NCBI GenBank assembly: GCA_008921705.1
Contig: VFFE01009203.1
Coordinates: 183,273 to 247,272 of the forward strand
Source: Burhinus oedicnemus
Taxonomy: Eukaryota; Chordata; Aves; Charadriiformes; Burhinidae
Reading direction: 5' to 3'
Length of the DNA: 64,000 bases
Made by a program: the position numbers and the translations under genes. Shown here in pieces: positions 16,401 to 63,900 of this stretch. The notes below the pieces were generated by a model, which was given only the letters and a program-made list of their open reading frames with translations, did no database searches and was not told where the DNA came from. Within the stretch, counting starts at the first letter, position 1. Each line of letters opens with the position of its first letter.

Positions 16401-19400
16401 GCTTCCCAGGCACCCCCTCCGCTACAGCGGTGCAGACCCTCTCTAACTGCTGGCCAAGGGGGCCCTTTATGGTGCCCGGGCAGTCTCTTTCACTGCATTC
16501 ATAGGGTATAACTGTGACTGGAGCTGAAGATGTACAAAAAAGGAATATAATTTCCAGTGCCTATGTAGAAGGCTCTTAAAAAGCCCATAATCAAGGAAAG
16601 CCACCATTGGTTTAGTTCCCATTTGAAAATGCATTTTATAGCAGCAAGCCTCTGAGGCTGAATCCAAAGCCAAGTGCCTCATTGTCGTGGTTTAGGCCAG
16701 GACGCTCATTTACTGCCATCACTACCTCTCTTTATTGATCAAACTGATGGCTTTCTCCATCAGATGTATCTGAATTGTGTGCTTAGGTTTACCCTATGCA
16801 AGGGAGAAGGAAGGACACTGGGGATGGTTTGGCTCTATTGAACAGGGTTTTGAGGATGCAGTGATCAAACGGGCTGACAACAAAACAAGGGTGAGCCATA
16901 TAGCAATCAGGGGCACACTGTGACCTCAACAAATGAAAGGAAGAGCTGAGTCTGTAAAACAGGACTTGCTAGCTATAAACTGTCAGGACAGTTACAGACA
17001 ATTAATTTATGGTGTGATGTCTACATGGGTTACTTAAAGCACCTCAGATATTTGGGTGGAGGCTCCCATTAAAGCCACAGCAGCAGTCTGAGGACCACCC
17101 ACCACAGGGATTTGCAAGCTTCTGGTTTTATGCATTGACTTTTGCCAATTGATCTTGGTCTTCCTGAATGCAGTCATTTTGCCCACGGCAAAATCTGGTT
17201 AATGTCTCTTGGTTTATTAATCCTTCTGTATTTATTGTTTGAGACTTGCCTATATCCAAGCTATTCTTGGAGATATTAATAGCGGTTAATATTTTACCTC
17301 TTGGAGTAAGCTGATTGCTTCATGCCACAAATCATATCTTTATCACTTCAAAGATGAAACCTAGATCTGTGCCAAGCCACTAATGTAATTACTGCCCCTT
17401 CCCTGCCACCCTCCTGCTCAGCAGCATCCACCATATGCAGAACCTGCTATATGCAATTATTTTCAATCACAAGCTTCACTCCAGACAGACAAGATCATCT
17501 TTCAAGTGCTAAGTGTTATTAAAATATGATCACGCATTATACCCGCAGCAAGAGTGACAGGGAAGGCAGTCTGGGATGCACAAGGATTACTCTGGGTAGT
17601 TTACTATTGGGGCGTCCACCCTCTGACCCCCTGGTTTTCAGTTTTGCAACTTGCAGGTCTGGGTAGCTCCTCACTTAGCACATAGGCTGGGTTTACCTCA
17701 CTTTTTTAAGGTATCCAGCTCTCTGCATGTACTACACAAAGAGCCTAGTGGCTTAATGGGACCCTGTTAAATATTGAAGCCAAGCACTTAATTCCAGCTT
17801 TGCGATGCCGAAACTGGCTGGAGTTGTCAGCCCCGTGGCTCTCTCCCACGTGCCTCACTAGCGCATTGAGCCAGCCGCAGCACTTGCAACAGCAGTCTTT
17901 CGTGGATCAGGGCAAGGAGCCCATTTCATTCCCGAATGCAAAACTGCTCCAGAAGAGCTGGTCTCTGACAGTGCCAACACCTCTGCTGGTGCACGGCACA
18001 TCATCCAAAACAGCAGCCAAGTGCCACCAGCGCCTCTGCTGCCAGCTGGCCTCGTCCCACTGACCAGCTCCCTCGCACCTCAGTGCTGCAGCCCCTTTTG
18101 TGAAGCTGCCGCTTACGGACCTGCATGCTTCCTTCCCCTTCCTATTTCTTTTAATGACTGTACTGCATAATGCAAGATGACAGATGAAGGTAATTACAGC
18201 ATGGTGGTTGGGGTTTTTTTTGTTACTTTCTTGAGAAATGTTATAGGCATCCTAAGCATTTTAAGCAGCTGTAAAGATGGGTGTGGTGTCTGGGTAGCAT
18301 AGCTGGCTAAATACAGTAGCTATAGGGCAGGCCAGGATGTGACTTTTGAGCTAAACCAGTAACTGCTCTCTACCGAAGCTGCAAAATTAGCTTAAGGATT
18401 TCCGTTGGGGTTGCAGCCCTTGGATTTAACTTAGATCTTTAAATGGAGGTTGCAGCTGTTCAGCAGGATCTGTATTTCTCTGTGATTAAACAAATCGGCT
18501 ATGAGCATGTACAAATTATTAGCAGCAATAGTGTGCTTTTGCAGGGTCTGATCCACGCTGTTACTTCCTTATAAAGAGGGATGGATTGACTTGAAGGGAA
18601 GGAGGGGCTGAGGGGCTTTTTTCCAAGTCCAATTAACACCATGGGCTTTGAGGCACACACCCCACTTTTAATGCATAAAATAAGGGAGCTGAAATGCCAG
18701 TCCACACCTTCACTGTCCACGCAGACCGTGGTGGTACCAGCCCTGTGGCAGTCATGCAAAATCCTGCTGAAAGCAATGGGACAGATCCAGCAGCGTTACA
18801 TGTACATGTATACATACTTCAGGGCATAAAGTAAAACTTGTGAAATGTTTTCGTACTGACTAGCGGGCTCTAAGTCTTTGAGGAAATCTTACACTGAAGG
18901 TAGGTCCCTGAGTTTGGCTCCCACCTTGCCTGCAAGAAGTACCAGGGAACACAACTGCTTTGTCAATAGACCTAAATCCACAACAGGCACGTACACACCA
19001 CTACAAGGGAAACATCTGAAGGTGAATCAAAACCAGCTGAAAACCAGGGATATCAAAGGAGATGTCAAAACAACAGCTTGAAGACTTGTGGCCAGTTGGT
19101 ACCTGTGACAAAATTGGTATTTATAGGCATAAGCCTTTTTGCCATGTGGGAAAACAGCCTCGTGCTCCTGGCAGCCCCCTTGGTCTCTGGCAGGTTTTGT
19201 GTTCACCAAACAGAGCGTGTGAGCTTGCCCGTGGCTTTATGCCCTGTCCTTCACATGTAAACATGCTGCCACTCGTGCTTCGGGGCCATGTGGCTGCACT
19301 GGAGTTAGGTGGCAGTTTCACCTCATCATCACAGTCAACACAGGCTGTGAGCAGAAAAGAAGTTGCAGTGCTCGATGGCTGGTACTCCACAAACCAAACC

Positions 19401-23314: not shown

Positions 23315-23839
23315 TAAAACATCAGATTTAACAGTCTCGCAATATGGTAGCTAACACTCCTGGAGATCTTGACAGGGTAGGCAGAGGCATCACAGCACAG
23401 GTGAGAGTAATTCACAATGAGTGCAATTAGCTGTCTTTGAAGTCTGGCATGTTTATGGCCTTCTAACCCAAGCCTCAAGAGTATGGTTTTGGTTACTGTC
23501 CTGGTTTGAGGTAAAACAGGACCAATTTTGTTCAGTAACTTTACTTTTTAGCTAGGCCTCTTCTAACTGCTGAAATTAACAGCATGTTGTGCAGAAAACT
23601 GTTTGCTCTCAGAGTGATAAGACCCATGTTTATAGCTGATGCCAAGGAATGGGATGCAGAGAGGCTCTTGCTTATCCTTATTGCTATAACAACCAAGGCC
23701 AGCCAACTTTGTTACTTGCCCCGTTGGAGGGTCGGAAGCGGAAAAGTGTAGAGGGGTCACACCTGCAGGGAGGAGCGGACAGGACAGGTGACCCAAAACT
23801 GACCAACAGGGTATTCCATCCCATCTGCCTCATGCTCAG

Positions 23840-23846
23840 TATAAAA
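23840..23846 (+). promoter_or_regulatory. LTR TATA box
   Basis: TATAAAA about 344 bp into the LTR and 251 bp before its polyadenylation signal, a normal U3/R arrangement. If active it would drive transcription in the same direction as the host gene. Confidence 0.65.
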
Positions 23847-24090
23847 GCTGAGGGATCAAAGAGTCAGCTCTCTTTCTTCAATGGCCGGCGTCCTGGGAGG
23901 ACTCTGTCTCTGCGTCTGCCTTTGATCCCGATCCTGAATCCAGATCCGGAATCCAGTTCCCGTCCATCACTGAGTCCACACTGGGACTTTCCCAGTGCTT
24001 CCTGGTGACGTGATTGTCATCCTGGGAGCTTGATACGGTTTTGTATATATTTCATTGTTTTTCTTTTTATTATTTTATTATCAATATTTC

Positions 24091-24096
24091 ATTAAA
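24091..24096 (+). terminator. LTR polyadenylation signal
   Basis: ATTAAA followed 30 bp later by the GT- and T-rich 'gtctgtctttttcttgcc'. It could cause premature polyadenylation of the host pre-mRNA because the LTR is in the sense direction inside the intron. Function is inferred from position only. Confidence 0.55.
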
Positions 24097-24219
24097 GTAG
24101 TTTAGTTCCTTCTAAACTCTTAAGTCTGTCTTTTTCTTGCCTCTCAAGTGGAGCAAGAGAGAGAGAGCATCTGTCATTCCACCGGATTGGGCCAATGTGG
24201 CCTAAACCACGACAGTTAC

Positions 24220-27200
24220 TCACATCCTTGGGAAGCTGGTAAATAACACTTGCTCCCGATGTCAGCCTTTTCCCCAACAAGCTGCTGGTCATAATGGTGA
24301 TGTCTGCACTGAGTGCTGAACGAGAGCCAGGGATGCGGCCAAGCCAGGCTCACACCCATGCAGCACAGGGTGAGCCAGCTCTAGAGAGCTCATCAAGCTG
24401 ATAGAAAACAAGGGCCCAGCAGGGAGCTAAGGATTAAGCAATGTGGATAATCAGGATCTGATGGTTACGTGCATATCCAGGTCCTTGCTTAGCTAGAAGG
24501 ATTGATGCAGCTGCCGATACCGTACTCTATAATTCTCTTTGTTCCTGTGTCACTTGAGGAAGAGAGGGGTCTGCAGTCTTCCTGAAGGAGCAGGAGAGAC
24601 TGAGCACCCCGACTGTCCCTAGGCTTGGCAGCTCCCACTCCCAAGCACAGGCACACAGTTCCCCGTTTCCAGCCCCTGCAAGCTAAACCTTACCGTTCGT
24701 GTTAAACTCTTTCCATAGCTGCATGTGCAGGGCTTGTGGTAGCCTGGCAGTAATCCCAGTGCAAAGAACAGTGGACAAAAATGGTCTCCAGGTTAAACAC
24801 AAACCTGCTGCATTATCTTTTAATTTTACACTGATATTTCTGTCGGGCTTCAGGAGTGAGGAGTTTTGTTTCCATCTCAGAGATGTTTCTTCTGAAGTTA
24901 TGCAAATGAATTGAGGTTGAAAGGTAAAAAAATACTGCTTAGAGAGAGATGTTCCAGGTCACACTCCCTTACGCTTGTGGTGTTTTGGAGTGCATTTGAT
25001 CTGGCATGGGACCAGAAATCCATATTACCAGTATCAGCACCCATCTCTACCGCTGCCACTGATGTTGTTAGCAGCAGCCACTAATGGTGTTGCCCAGGGG
25101 ACATATAGCATGCTCTAGAAGCTTTACCTTGTTATTCTGAACACTAATATCCTTCTGCGCTATCGGTACCCTCACTGGTGCGTGCCGGTGCCTGCTCTTT
25201 CACACCAAGCATGTGAGTAGCTCTGCTCTGCGATTCCTGATGTGTCTCTTGACAGCGTGCTGGTTCCCAGGCTTCAGTCGCTGCTCTCCCCAGAGTGCAG
25301 AAAAGTGTTACCTTTCCAGGTTATTTCTCTGCAAACCCACAAGGTGGGTTTTGTGCCCGTCTGAGCTCCTTGAAGACAGCACTTAAGCAGTTACAAACTG
25401 TGACCTTAAACACAGTCGTGCCCACAATCAGAGCAGAGTCTCTGTGACCACCTTTGCCGTCTCAGTCTTGACTCATGAGTCAGATATTTGCATAAATTGA
25501 ATCACTCTGCCATTAAAGTCAGTGAAGAAACCCATGTGAAAGATTTCAGCTGACAGCTTTCCTTCCAGGTGCGCATAAGGACCATGAGATATATTACATT
25601 AACTGTGAAGGCATGTACTCTTACTGTATTTTCTGCACGTGGAGCATGCAGGGCATGTGTTACGCATTCCTAGACTTGACGGGAACGCTGGTCTCACCGA
25701 TCGGCTGCAATCGTATGTTAACACATTCATTAACAGATTATAATGACAGCTGAAATTTGCTGTAGTGATTTCCACCAGGCAGCTCTGCCATTAAACATCT
25801 CTTTTCCACATACATTGGCAGTGAATTTAAACGCTTGGCTAAGATTTTTTTTTACTTAATGTCAGTGCCTGGTTGATGCCATGTTAGCAAAGTCATCTGT
25901 AAAGAAAAGGTACTGTCCCAGGGCCGTTTAATAACCACACTGCTCGTCATCTTTCATAAATACCTCTTGGTTGGTGATAACCCAGACCCGTTAGTCTTTT
26001 CTGAATCATTAGAGACTGGCTTACTCATTATAGCCTACAGGCCAAAAATGATGTTTCAAAGACTTAATCTCACTAAGTCTCAAGACAAATTTAAGTAATT
26101 ATTGCTTTCATTTGAATATTTAATTTGATTAAGCCGCAATGATATGCTTTCTCTTCCTGAGTCTGTGAAATGAGTTATCTCAAGAACCACATATATACAC
26201 ACTGCATTCAAAATCTGCCCTTAGAAAAGCTGAGCTGCCACGAGTCCTGCACTGGTTTGCTGATGGGAGAAATGGTGGTGGTGGTGGGAGTGCTGGTCCT
26301 GCACCTCCTGCTGCTGTGGGTGCTAGGGGGGATGGTGCTGAGAGTCTAATTCAGCACATGTGGTTGCTCTCAAAGAAGGTGTTCAAAGGGATGCTGATGA
26401 GCAGACAGCATTCAGCCTCCCCCTCGAGCACGGCAGAGCAAGTGTTGCAGCTTGGCCCACAGGGAACGTGTCTGAGTGGCTAGGAAAGGAGGGTCAAAGC
26501 ACACCAGGTTTGAGCACAGAGCCAGCAAAGGTGGAGGTTCAGTGGTGAGTGCGATTCACTCTGGACTTGCAAAAAGTGAGGCGAAAAAATGGTTGAGATT
26601 GGAGGTAGAAAAAATAATCCAGGAGCTGCAATCTACATTATAGGAAGATGAGAAAGACAAGAGGCAGGTGCAGAGGAGGGACTGCAAGAACTCACTTGAG
26701 AAGCAGCTGAATTGTGCACTGTGTAATGTGATGTTAACCAGAAATATTCCAGAATTAGCAATTAAATGAAAATTTTTGCTTTACCAAAACAAGACAAACC
26801 CGCAACCCCCGTAACATGCTTGTAACTAGATAGAATAAATAAATAGCAATGCTAAGAGCCCATAAAAAAGCCTAATCCTTAGTGGGTGTGCTAGATAAGA
26901 AGTGCTTCTTCACGTCTTCAGGCACTCTGAAAAAGCATTAGACTAATAGGCACTCCAAATAGTGCTGAGATAGCCCATATTGTGATGAGGGGACCCCCTC
27001 CCTCCACCCCCGCCAAACATGAACATTTCTGTGTATGTTCCAAAACGATATTTAAAAAAGCTGCAGGAAAAATAACCATGCCTATAATTTACGTATAAGT
27101 GGATTTAGGTATTCTTTTCTAGAAAACATGAGCTGACATTGTGAAATGACCAGCAGTTTGCTGCTCTCTTTAAAATTGGATATTTATTTGGTTTTTATTA

Positions 27201-60595: not shown

Positions 60596-60797
60596 AAAAG
60601 TGTCCTGGTTTGAGGTAAAACAGGACCAATTTTGCTCAGTAACTTTGCTTTTTAGCTAGGCCTCTTCTAACTCCTGAAATTGGCAGCATATTTTGCAGAA
60701 ACTGTTCACTCTCAGAGTGATAAGACCTATGTGTATAGTTGATGCCAAGTAATGGTATGCAGAGAAGCTCTTGCTTATATTTATTTCTATAACAACT

Positions 60798-60957
60798 GTG
60801 GCTCTTAAAAGAGCCATTGGGTTTAAGTGCGGAGCAAGAGTTTTCTTCCACGGGGGTTTACTTCTTCTTGGGTGCCACCTTCTTCACCTTGGCTGCTTTG
60901 GGCTTGGCCACCTTGGGCTTGGCTGCTTTGGGCTTCACCTCCTTCACCTTGGCTGGG
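60798..60957 (-). pseudogene. Histone H1 3' fragment (C-terminal tail, stop, 3'UTR, stem-loop)
   Basis: Read on the minus strand, the frame from about 60957 to a TAA at 60858-60860 encodes about 32 residues of lysine/alanine/proline repeats: PAKVKEVKPKAAK, then PKVAKPKAAK, ending VKKVAPKKK. This is the C-terminal tail of a linker histone H1, which binds linker DNA between nucleosomes. It lacks the globular winged-helix domain and the start, so it cannot make H1. After the stop come 42 nt and then the histone stem-loop. The frame is intact over this length, with valine replacing alanine at several tail positions. The missing 5' part and the mRNA-like 3' end indicate a truncated RNA-derived copy rather than a genomic H1 gene. 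Confidence 0.9.
60800..60815 (-). promoter_or_regulatory. Histone mRNA 3' stem-loop
   Basis: On the minus strand it reads GGCTCTTTTAAGAGCC, a perfect 6-bp stem with a TTTT/TTTA-type four-base loop. It is the canonical 3' processing signal of replication-dependent histone mRNAs, bound by SLBP. It is preceded by CAAT and followed by ACA, after which LTR sequence begins. The purine-rich histone downstream element of a genomic histone gene is absent. Confidence 0.95.
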
Positions 60958-60976
60958 CCCAAACCCCAACAAAAAG

Positions 60977-63900
60977 TCTCCCCGTGTTCCCTCCATCACC
61001 CCACATGATTCAAGAGTGTATCCTATCAGTGTCCGGTTTTCCAGACAGGAGAAAGTCTGCTCCTAAGGAAGCCAGGGCCTGCCCAAGCCTCTCCCTGGGC
61101 AGAAACAGAAAGAAGAGCTTAGGGAAATCACTGGCTGGCAATAAGCAGCTTTGCATCCTTCAGCTCCTTCAAACAAGGCCTAAAAGTGGACCAGGGGATT
61201 TTAATCAGAACCTAAAGCTGAGAAATTCTGGGGCTGCAGAGACACAGGTTTGGCTTTCTCCCACTGTCCTTGTTGTCTCTGGAGGAAAATTGATATTGAC
61301 CTGAGTAGAAAGATAAGTCTGGAGAGCTTTTAGACCAGTGTTGGGTTTGCTTTGTTGCTTAATGAAACCTAAACAGCAATTACAATTAAATTAAAATTGA
61401 TTGGAATTCAACATGGGATCCTAAAACATACAAAAGAACAGCTTTTCTCTTAAAATCTGTAGTCCCTAATGAAAATCTAGCTGTATCTTTTTTCAATCTC
61501 ATATAATTTTATAATAAAATAGAAGAAAATGCAGAGATCTTCCTGGAATCTCATTTTAAGTGTGTATAAATGACCATATTGAATTTCATGGACCAGATCC
61601 TGCTTTAACTGAATCTGGGGCAAATCCAAAGCAATTCCATTTATTCTGATAGATTTCTTCAAACAAGGAGCAGAGCCTGGCTTTCCAGCACCAGTGTTTA
61701 AACTGTTTGCAGTCAAAGCAAATTCAAACTCCACTGAAAGCTATAGTGTTATTGGAAATTTTCCATATCTTTTATTGTCTGTGTGCAAAATAGATCACTA
61801 TGTTCCCAACAGTTAATAATTTTTGTTTTGTAAGAATGCTCTGCACATAATTAAATTCTTTAATCACTTTTTGAAAGTAAACCATAATATTTACTGTTAA
61901 GACTTGGTGTGCGCTACGGATGTTCATGTTTATATGTTAAATCTATTATAACCATGTTGCTTTTGATAGTCTTAGAACCATCCTCACCATCTTTTTGTAG
62001 CATTCGTGGCCAGGGGAGGTGGAGAGTCCCCTGTTGGCTAAAGTAATGCATCTTCCATTCTTGGATCCTGGCCAAAGGCCACGTAGCCTTGTGATTAATA
62101 TGTTAGCTGCACATTTAAAAGGTAGAAAATTCCCCTTCTGCTGAGCTTGTACGCTTGCTGACATTAATATTTTCCATCTCTTGCTGTTGATTATGATTTT
62201 CCATTTTTCTGTAACAAAAATGAGACAAAAAAACACTCAGACATATCACCACATATTTAATACAGCCAAATTATTGTAAATAGAAAGATAGGTCTGACAC
62301 TTTATCACATTATGGAAACACAGGAGCCCTGTTATACACAAGAGAGGCTTTTTACTTACAGCTTTGAAGTAAGATTTTCAGAAACAAGCAACAATTTTTC
62401 CATGTTTCATCTCTCAGGTTTTTGCTAATGAGCAAAATCTCTTTAAAATTCCCACTCCTGTAAAATCAAACACTGAACACTAAAGAAGTGAGGGAACCAA
62501 AATCATTATTGCAGATATGTGGCCTGACTTCTTGTAGGCCTGCTTTTACCCTTTTTTATTAGCAACATACACTCATATCCACAGCTGAGCATGTAGTACC
62601 ATGTAATTTTTACCAGTATCCCCAGTTACCACCAGACCCTAACCTGACCTTGCTTTACAGCTCCCTGCAGATGCTCCATAGACAGAAGTGCGACCCACAT
62701 AAACTTGTGCTCCATATCGATCACGCAGATACTCTTTTTTGTTTACGCTGAGGACTTAGGAAATTGCTATTACCTTGGGAAAAATTTACTCTCAAACTGC
62801 TCATGGCCTGCCAGGGTTCTCTTTTTGGCAGGGAAGAGGCTCAATATCTTTGGGACACTAGGTTATTTTAGAATAAACTTGCTTAACATTGTATGTGGTC
62901 TCTTGCTTTGGTGAAATATAGAATAACACGTACTATGGGTTAAAGCTCTGAAGAGATATTTTTCCATAATTGTGATATTTCCATATTTTGGAAACAAGCT
63001 ATCAGAAATATCCCATTCTCTTTTTTTAATTTTTGACCTCTTGGGGTTGGAGTCATACCACCTACCTTCAGTTGCACACATGCACATCTGAACTAGTTGT
63101 CTAGAGTCCCTGTTTAATGTGTGAAGAGAAATGGCTACCTCAAGACCATTGTTCATCTGACTACCTGGCCTCAGCATGTCTGTTCCTCTTTGACTATAAA
63201 GGGAACCTTGAAGGATCAGCACAGAGGTGGACATCTGCATTATACCTTTGAAGTCTGGTAAGAAACCTCTCACATGTGACCTTCTGTTCACTTTTACCCT
63301 TGTAGGTCTTCTGCACCCACAGTTTTTACTGGATAGCAATGCAGACATTGGTGGCCAGCTCTGGCCTTGATTATGGCTTCAATATTAAGTTTAACAGGTC
63401 AGGAATATCTGCATATGGACATCTGTGCTGTTAATGAGTATCACACTCCCTGGCCCATCTTTGGCCCCCTACCAACTCACACTGTCCCAGGCAGTGTTGA
63501 GACACATCTCAGGAAACAGCACAGACCAAGGATTCTTGCCAACAAGTGGAGTGAATGAATGGTTTAGGAGAGGAAGAGATTGTAGTCATATGAATACTAA
63601 GGTGGTCATCCCCTTTGTCCCCGTGACCACATCTTCCTGCCCTGTTTTATTTGCCCATGCATTTCATGCTGTAAGTATAAATATAGTTGTTTGGTTCAAC
63701 AGCAGCTCTTTTCTAATGCAGTTTTATCCATTACATTGCATCTGGCTAAATACTTCTTTTCCTAACTTGGCTTTTTGTTTTCATATGTAAAATGTTTTGG
63801 ATTAGGTATATATTTGCTGACATTTCTGTAGGAGGTGGTAAATTGTTGACATTAAATATCAAGACAATTATTTTTGCTTATGGAACACTGTCTAATGTCT

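What the first reader, a model, noticed from the sequence alone, without database searches (positions are those of the whole stretch)
60601..60971. An LTR whose body is replaced by antisense histone H1 mRNA sequence
Both LTR termini and a 5-bp target-site duplication are present, but the interior is an antisense linker-histone H1 3' end. Replication-dependent histone mRNAs lack poly(A) and are poor LINE templates, so capture by a retroviral particle through template switching is an attractive origin. If many copies share the same junctions, this would be a new non-autonomous LTR family carrying a host histone processing signal.
Basis: partly seen in the sequence, partly recalled or inferred. 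Interest (0 to 1): 0.85.

Follow-up and report, generated by a model that had tools for sequence, protein, structure and literature searches.

The report
Bird LTR with captured histone H1
In what is probably a songbird genome, a solitary retrovirus-type LTR keeps both its ends and its integration footprint, but its middle has been swapped for a backwards copy of the tail of a histone H1 messenger RNA, beginning where the finished messenger would end.

Summary
60601-60971 (371 bp) has a 5-bp direct repeat AAAAG on both sides, the first 196 bp of an LTR whose 718-bp full copy lies in the same window (23497-24214), and that LTR's last 16 bp. Between them lie 32 antisense codons of linker histone H1, the stop, a 42-nt 3'UTR and the histone stem-loop (Rfam RF00032). 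About 505 bp of LTR, with its presumed TATA box and poly(A) signal, are missing.

The H1 piece stops 3 nt past the stem, the length expected for cytoplasmic, exonuclease-trimmed histone mRNA, and LTR sequence follows at once. The far junction can be read as 3-nt microhomology. With the antisense orientation this suggests that reverse transcriptase, extending the LTR plus strand, went onto the 3' end of a mature H1 mRNA and returned to the LTR terminus. The source may be a divergent passerine H1 paralogue.

Whether this happened in a virus-like particle or in repair of an existing solo LTR is open. The 'new mobile family' idea is unsupported: promoter and poly(A) signal are gone, the window has no second copy, and no bird genome could be searched.

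The parts
60596..60600 (.). left target-site duplication AAAAG
60601..60796 (+). 5' part of the LTR (U3), LTR positions 1-197
   Evidence: 90.4% identity to 23497-23693; 18 substitutions and 1 gap, K2P 0.099
60797..60799 (-). 3-nt tail (ACA in the mRNA sense) after the histone stem, not matched by the full LTR copy; junction 1 is 60796/60797
60800..60815 (-). histone mRNA 3' stem-loop GGCUCUUUUAAGAGCC
   Evidence: RF00032 hit at 60774-60820; fold
60816..60857 (-). H1 3' UTR between stop codon and stem-loop (42 nt)
   Evidence: read from the sequence
60858..60860 (-). H1 stop codon TAA
60861..60956 (-). last 32 H1 codons, PAKVKEVKPKAAKPKVAKPKAAKVKKVAPKKK
60956..60958 (.). junction 2, possible 3-nt microhomology GGC shared by the LTR end and an expected H1 Ser codon (AGC)
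   Evidence: the Ser codon of the source gene is inferred, not seen
60956..60971 (+). 3' terminus of the LTR (end of U5), ...CA
   Evidence: 13 of 16 to 24199-24214
60972..60976 (.). right target-site duplication AAAAG
23497..24214 (+). full 718-bp solo LTR of the same family (TSD GTTAC on both sides; TATAAA at 23840, ATTAAA at 24091), used as comparator
16683..16704 (-). 22-bp remnant of the same family: LTR first 8 bp (one change) joined to its last 14-17 bp at TGG, TSD ATGAG on both sides

Best explanation
This is a solitary LTR, ERV3/ERVL by its 5-bp TSD, whose interior was replaced by cDNA of a mature replication-dependent histone H1 mRNA. Mechanism: during plus-strand DNA synthesis in a virus-like particle, reverse transcriptase copied the first ~197 nt of U3, switched onto the 3' terminus of a co-packaged, trimmed H1 mRNA, copied about 160 nt (giving the antisense orientation), then switched back by a 3-nt match to the last ~16 nt of U5, next to the tRNA primer. 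The product has the polypurine-tract-defined left end and the tRNA-defined right end that integrase needs, so it could integrate as a single composite LTR and leave a 5-bp duplication. Shown: anatomy, orientation, junction 1, TSD. Strongly inferred: mature mRNA as template (my probability about 0.9). Less certain: that it happened in the particle before integration, and that the element was born solo.
For: Antisense H1 with intact mRNA 3' end and truncated mRNA 5' end. H1 sequence stops 3 nt beyond the stem and LTR sequence starts at once, so no downstream histone DNA is present. PMC7026596 (passages): mouse U7 snRNP cleaves 5 nt after the stem; PMC10388802 (passages): 3'hExo then removes two nucleotides after export, and over-trimmed ends are refilled to three beyond the stem. 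Possible 3-nt microhomology at the return junction. Both LTR termini and the TSD are kept, as integrase would require. LTR-mediated mRNA capture by microsimilarity and chance packaging is described in PMC5408686 (section 6). Strand logic of reverse transcription is recalled.
Against: The usual capture model predicts sense orientation (my inference), because mRNA enters during minus-strand synthesis. In an ordinary provirus this switch would make only the 5' LTR chimeric, and collapse to a chimeric solo LTR would need a crossover inside 16 bp, hence the extra 'born solo' assumption. Solo LTRs by recombination are common in birds (PMC11009239, passages), which favours starting from an ordinary solo LTR. 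The 22-bp remnant of the same family has nearly the same right breakpoint (LTR ~702 against ~703) and seems too short to have been integrated as such, which favours deletion in host DNA. The canonical trimmed tail would be ACC; ACA is seen and the source gene's tail is unknown. No microhomology is apparent at junction 1. One copy only; no orthologous site examined.
Confidence: 0.45

Rival explanations
1. Post-integration patch. An ordinary solo LTR was broken in the germ line; about 505 bp were lost, and a reverse transcriptase (ERV or CR1) extended the broken plus strand from the 3' end of an H1 mRNA, or an H1 cDNA was captured as filler, with microhomology joining at the other side (like endonuclease-independent LINE retrotransposition, recalled).
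For: Explains the orientation, the intact mRNA 3' end, the 5' truncation, the target deletion and the GGC match without a special solo-birth step. A second copy of the family has an internal deletion with TGG microhomology and a similar right breakpoint. Solo LTRs are common in birds.
Against: The 3-nt tail points to the cytoplasmic form of the mRNA. Retention of both LTR ends, one by only 16 bp, is a coincidence here. Not tested at an orthologous site.
Confidence: 0.38
2. A mobilised non-autonomous LTR family that carries H1 sequence.
For: Intact termini and TSD; 10% distance from the other copy leaves room for an old lineage.
Against: No second copy in the window. TATAAA and ATTAAA motifs lost, so the element would hardly drive its own transcript. 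No hits in viral contigs or genome contigs, though these are not bird collections and say little.
Confidence: 0.06
3. Nested LINE-type (CR1) retroposition of H1 into the LTR, with a separate deletion.
For: 5'-truncated, 3'-complete insert. A 5-mer AACAA lies at junction 1 and recurs to the right.
Against: The right AACAA is 10 nt beyond junction 2, inside the LTR end, so it is not a target duplication of the H1 piece; no CR1 motif ATTCTRTG and no A run of 8 or more within 200 bp on either strand; it needs a separate 505-bp deletion ending at the same place.
Confidence: 0.04
4. Capture of histone gene DNA (not RNA) as filler, or an assembly artefact.
For: Histone genes are multi-copy and intronless (recalled), so no intron loss can be shown.
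Against: The break 3 nt past the stem would be a coincidence: about 1 in 700, or 4 in 700 for 2-5 nt, for a random break over an assumed ~700-nt transcript. Matching TSDs argue against misassembly.
Confidence: 0.07

Closest known systems
LTR-mediated retrocopies (Tan et al. 2016, not held; known here only through the review PMC5408686)
   Same: host mRNA piece joined to LTR sequence by template switching at short matches, partial mRNA
   Different: here the mRNA is antisense to the LTR, lies inside a single LTR, ends at a histone stem-loop instead of poly(A), and the LTR has lost its presumed promoter and poly(A) signal
Endonuclease-independent LINE retrotransposition / cDNA patching of breaks (PMC2912911 seen in listing only; details recalled)
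   Same: cDNA primed at a DNA 3' end, 5' truncation, target deletion, microhomology
   Different: template without poly(A); both LTR ends and TSD kept; no LINE signature found
Avian ERV3/ERVL solo LTRs (PMC6523648, passages)
   Same: TG...CA ends, 5-bp TSD, solo state
   Different: interior replaced by host mRNA sequence

Membership tests
ERV3/ERVL solo LTR | 5'-TG...CA-3' ends | tested here: met
   TGTCCT...CAACA
ERV3/ERVL solo LTR | 5-bp target-site duplication | tested here: met
   AAAAG twice, GTTAC twice at the full copy; class rule from PMC6523648
ERV3/ERVL solo LTR | internal ERVL gag/pol in sibling copies | not tested
Replication-dependent histone mRNA | 3' stem-loop of the histone family | tested here: met
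   RF00032 35.4 bits, gathering 34
Replication-dependent histone mRNA | H1 coding end upstream of the stem-loop | tested here: met
   27 of 32 residues to P0106, P0084 and P0002, the best of 132
Replication-dependent histone mRNA | processed 3' end rather than genomic flank | tested here: met
   LTR sequence begins 3 nt past the stem; the source gene's flank was not seen
LTR-mediated retrocopy | mRNA piece between LTR sequences with microsimilarity at junctions | tested here: inconclusive
   possible GGC at junction 2; none apparent at junction 1
LTR-mediated retrocopy | mRNA enters in minus-strand synthesis, so sense to the LTR (my inference from PMC5408686 section 6) | tested here: not met
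   antisense
Mobile LTR family with H1 cargo | several copies with identical junctions and different TSDs | not testable with these tools
   1 copy in window; the genome search gave no answer in 15 tries
CR1 retroposition | CR1 3' motif and nested target duplication | tested here: not met

The most novel reading that the evidence does not exclude
The chimera was born solo: a reverse transcriptase in an avian ERVL particle moved during plus-strand synthesis onto the free 3' end of a non-polyadenylated, trimmed histone mRNA, returned to the tRNA-proximal end of the U5 copy, and the resulting 371-bp single-LTR DNA was integrated. This would be an LTR-based route by which poly(A)-less mRNAs enter bird genomes, and a source of solo LTRs that needs no LTR-LTR recombination.
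Probability: 0.3. Interest if true: 0.7.

Novelty: new variant of a known kind. Interest (0 to 1): 0.48.

Why it matters
Bird CR1 LINEs have special template needs, held to explain the scarcity of bird retrogenes (Suh 2015, seen only as a title in a reference list), and histone mRNAs lack poly(A), so a histone retrocopy in a bird suggests another route. This locus records one with base-level detail: the junction matches the trimmed mRNA end. Standard retrocopy pipelines could miss such cases; the VGP pipeline requires exon-exon junctions, drops families with more than five paralogues and filters repeat overlap of 40% or more (PMC13320880, passages).

Tried and rejected
Genome-wide copy number: the genome search on the own genome gave a busy error 15 times. 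Viral and prokaryote collections searched for stray bird DNA: no match. Pfam scan of the H1 tail: no family, expected since the Pfam linker-histone model covers the globular domain (recalled). No tRNA gene in the window. Promoter/terminator scan: only the histone stem-loop, no more than in shuffles. CR1/TPRT nested insertion rejected. The ORF at 60771-61304 runs antisense through H1 and out into flank; taken as spurious. Further copies of the LTR: the 5'-terminus pattern gave 4 matches against 2.5 by chance, only the two known ones exact; a TSD-plus-termini scan gave one weak extra candidate, 25352-26506 (8 of 12 at each end), not followed. Papers: Tan et al. 2016 not held; two histone mRNA papers not held. 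Searches came nearest to asking for such a chimera; by title and abstract start no listed paper reports one, but 11 and 29 listed only 20 of 26 and 20 of 52 papers, and the library is partial.

Full report
What is there. The stretch 60601-60971 is flanked by AAAAG on both sides. Its first 196 bases match 23497-23693 of the same window at 90.4% over 197 columns (18 substitutions and one gap, K2P 0.099). That second place is a full 718-bp solo LTR, 23497-24214, with GTTAC on both sides, TATAAA at 23840 and ATTAAA at 24091; reading these as promoter and poly(A) signal is inference. The last 16 bases of the finding match the last 16 of this LTR at 13 of 16; 12 of 127,966 window 17-mers align to that end as well or better, true copies included. 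About 505 bp of the LTR are absent, with both motifs. By the TSD rule used for songbird LTRs (PMC6523648, passages) a 5-bp duplication indicates ERV3/ERVL. No call named the LTR family or the host; 'bird, probably passerine' is my inference from the LTR type (recalled) and the H1 tail.

The insert. Read on the minus strand, 60956-60797 gives 32 H1 codons, TAA, 42 nt of 3'UTR, the histone stem-loop and three more bases, ACA. Rfam finds RF00032 at 60774-60820 with 35.4 bits, just above its gathering score of 34; the model's downstream part aligns to LTR bases. That 47-nt stretch folds better than 200 of 200 shuffles. PDB H1.4, H1.1 and H1.3 tails match weakly (7 sequences, best E 0.027).

The source gene. 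Among 132 H1-like proteins from the listed best of two searches, the best ungapped matches to the tail are 27 of 32 residues: P0106 (Setophaga), P0084 (Cardinalis) and P0002, a gull. Overall identity therefore does not single out a paralogue. The motif KEVKP occurs in 4 of 132, from Vidua, Geothlypis, Setophaga and Taeniopygia, all passerines. Two of these start with MLD, one has MLD near its start and one is a partial record resembling them. By globular domain, 6 of 132 are closer to the Vidua type than to the chicken-like core; 3 of those 6 and 1 of the other 126 carry KEVKP. A divergent passerine H1 paralogue is thus a likely source, but this rests on two residues. I had only proteins, no bird H1 DNA.

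The junctions. At junction 1 the LTR reads AACAAC and then departs from the full copy. The H1 side ends three bases past the stem. PMC7026596 (passages) gives cleavage 5 nt after the stem for mouse U7 snRNP; PMC10388802 (passages) says that 3'hExo removes two nucleotides after export and that ends trimmed further are refilled with uridines to three. The insert thus ends where a cytoplasmic histone mRNA ends, without the downstream element that genomic DNA would carry. A break at exactly that place is about 1 in 700 for a random break over an assumed 700-nt transcript, or 4 in 700 for 2-5 nt. The observed tail is ACA, not ACC; either the source gene reads ACA or a change occurred. At junction 2, of the 44 of 132 proteins whose tail match is at least 22 of 32 and reaches the C-terminus, 41 have Ser before PAK. 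An AGC codon would share GGC with the LTR end: 3-nt microhomology, inferred without the source DNA.

Mechanism. The H1 piece is antisense to the LTR with its mRNA 3' end at the U3 side. A DNA 3' end on the LTR plus strand must therefore have been extended on H1 mRNA from its terminus. In minus-strand capture, the route that I read from PMC5408686 (section 6), the mRNA would be sense. Two settings fit. (A) Plus-strand synthesis in a particle, returning to the U5 end beside the tRNA primer; both integrase ends are then correct. Textbook reverse transcription (recalled) would place such a change in the 5' LTR only, and recombination to a chimeric solo LTR would need a crossover in 16 bp, so A needs direct integration of a single-LTR molecule. 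(B) A break in an existing solo LTR, patched by reverse transcription of H1 mRNA; solo LTRs are common in birds (PMC11009239 and PMC6523648, passages). The cytoplasmic tail length and the kept termini favour A; the 22-bp remnant below and the ease of starting from a solo LTR favour B. I put A at 0.45 and B at 0.38. Both share the core claim, RNA-templated capture from mature histone mRNA, at about 0.9.

A related find. On the minus strand, 16683-16704 is a 22-bp remnant: the first 8 bases of the LTR (one change) joined at TGG to its last 14-17 bases, with ATGAG on both sides. Identical 5-mers at that spacing occur at 130 of 63,595 positions. Its right breakpoint lies within a base or so of junction 2. 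Three copies of this family were recognised in the window, and two of them are internally gutted with ends and TSD kept. The remnant was found by its 3' end, so this is not an unbiased sample.

Against. Every statement on copy number and origin time lacks a bird genome: the genome search did not answer in 15 tries, and the viral and prokaryote scans were empty, as expected for bird DNA. The comparison for the LTR 3' end is one full copy plus the 22-bp remnant. Loss of the presumed promoter and poly(A) signal makes self-mobilisation unlikely but does not exclude spread driven from outside.

Novelty. Host mRNA capture by LTR elements is known; this is a variant with a poly(A)-less mRNA, antisense, inside one LTR, with the mature end preserved. 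The searches nearest the point listed no such case by title and abstract start; two of them listed only part of their hits, and most subscription papers are not in that library.

Noticed in passing
window 16683-16704 (minus), TSD 16678-16682 and 16705-16709: 22-bp remnant of the same LTR family: 8 bp of the 5' end joined at TGG microhomology to 14-17 bp of the 3' end, with ATGAG duplicated. Its right breakpoint nearly coincides with that of the H1 chimera.
   Followed up: partly
window 23497-24214: Complete 718-bp solo LTR of the same family with TSD GTTAC; its termini form an imperfect inverted repeat of about 11 bp.
   Followed up: yes
proteins P0026, P0096, P0106, P0124: A divergent passerine H1 type (MLD near the start, SNGTL in the globular domain, KEVKP tail). 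It may be the source of the insert; its expression and genomic place are unknown here.
   Followed up: partly
window 60861-60956 (minus): Most residue differences from the common bird H1 tail are Ala to Val as GTG codons (GCG to GTG would be CpG decay); V4 and E6 are shared with some passerine H1s, the others may be decay.
   Followed up: no
window 60780-60785 (minus): AATAAA on the H1-sense strand just downstream of the stem-loop, where the full LTR copy differs; probably chance.
   Followed up: no
window 25352-26506: Weak candidate element from the TSD-plus-termini scan (TSD GGTTT, 8 of 12 at each end); may be chance.
   Followed up: no
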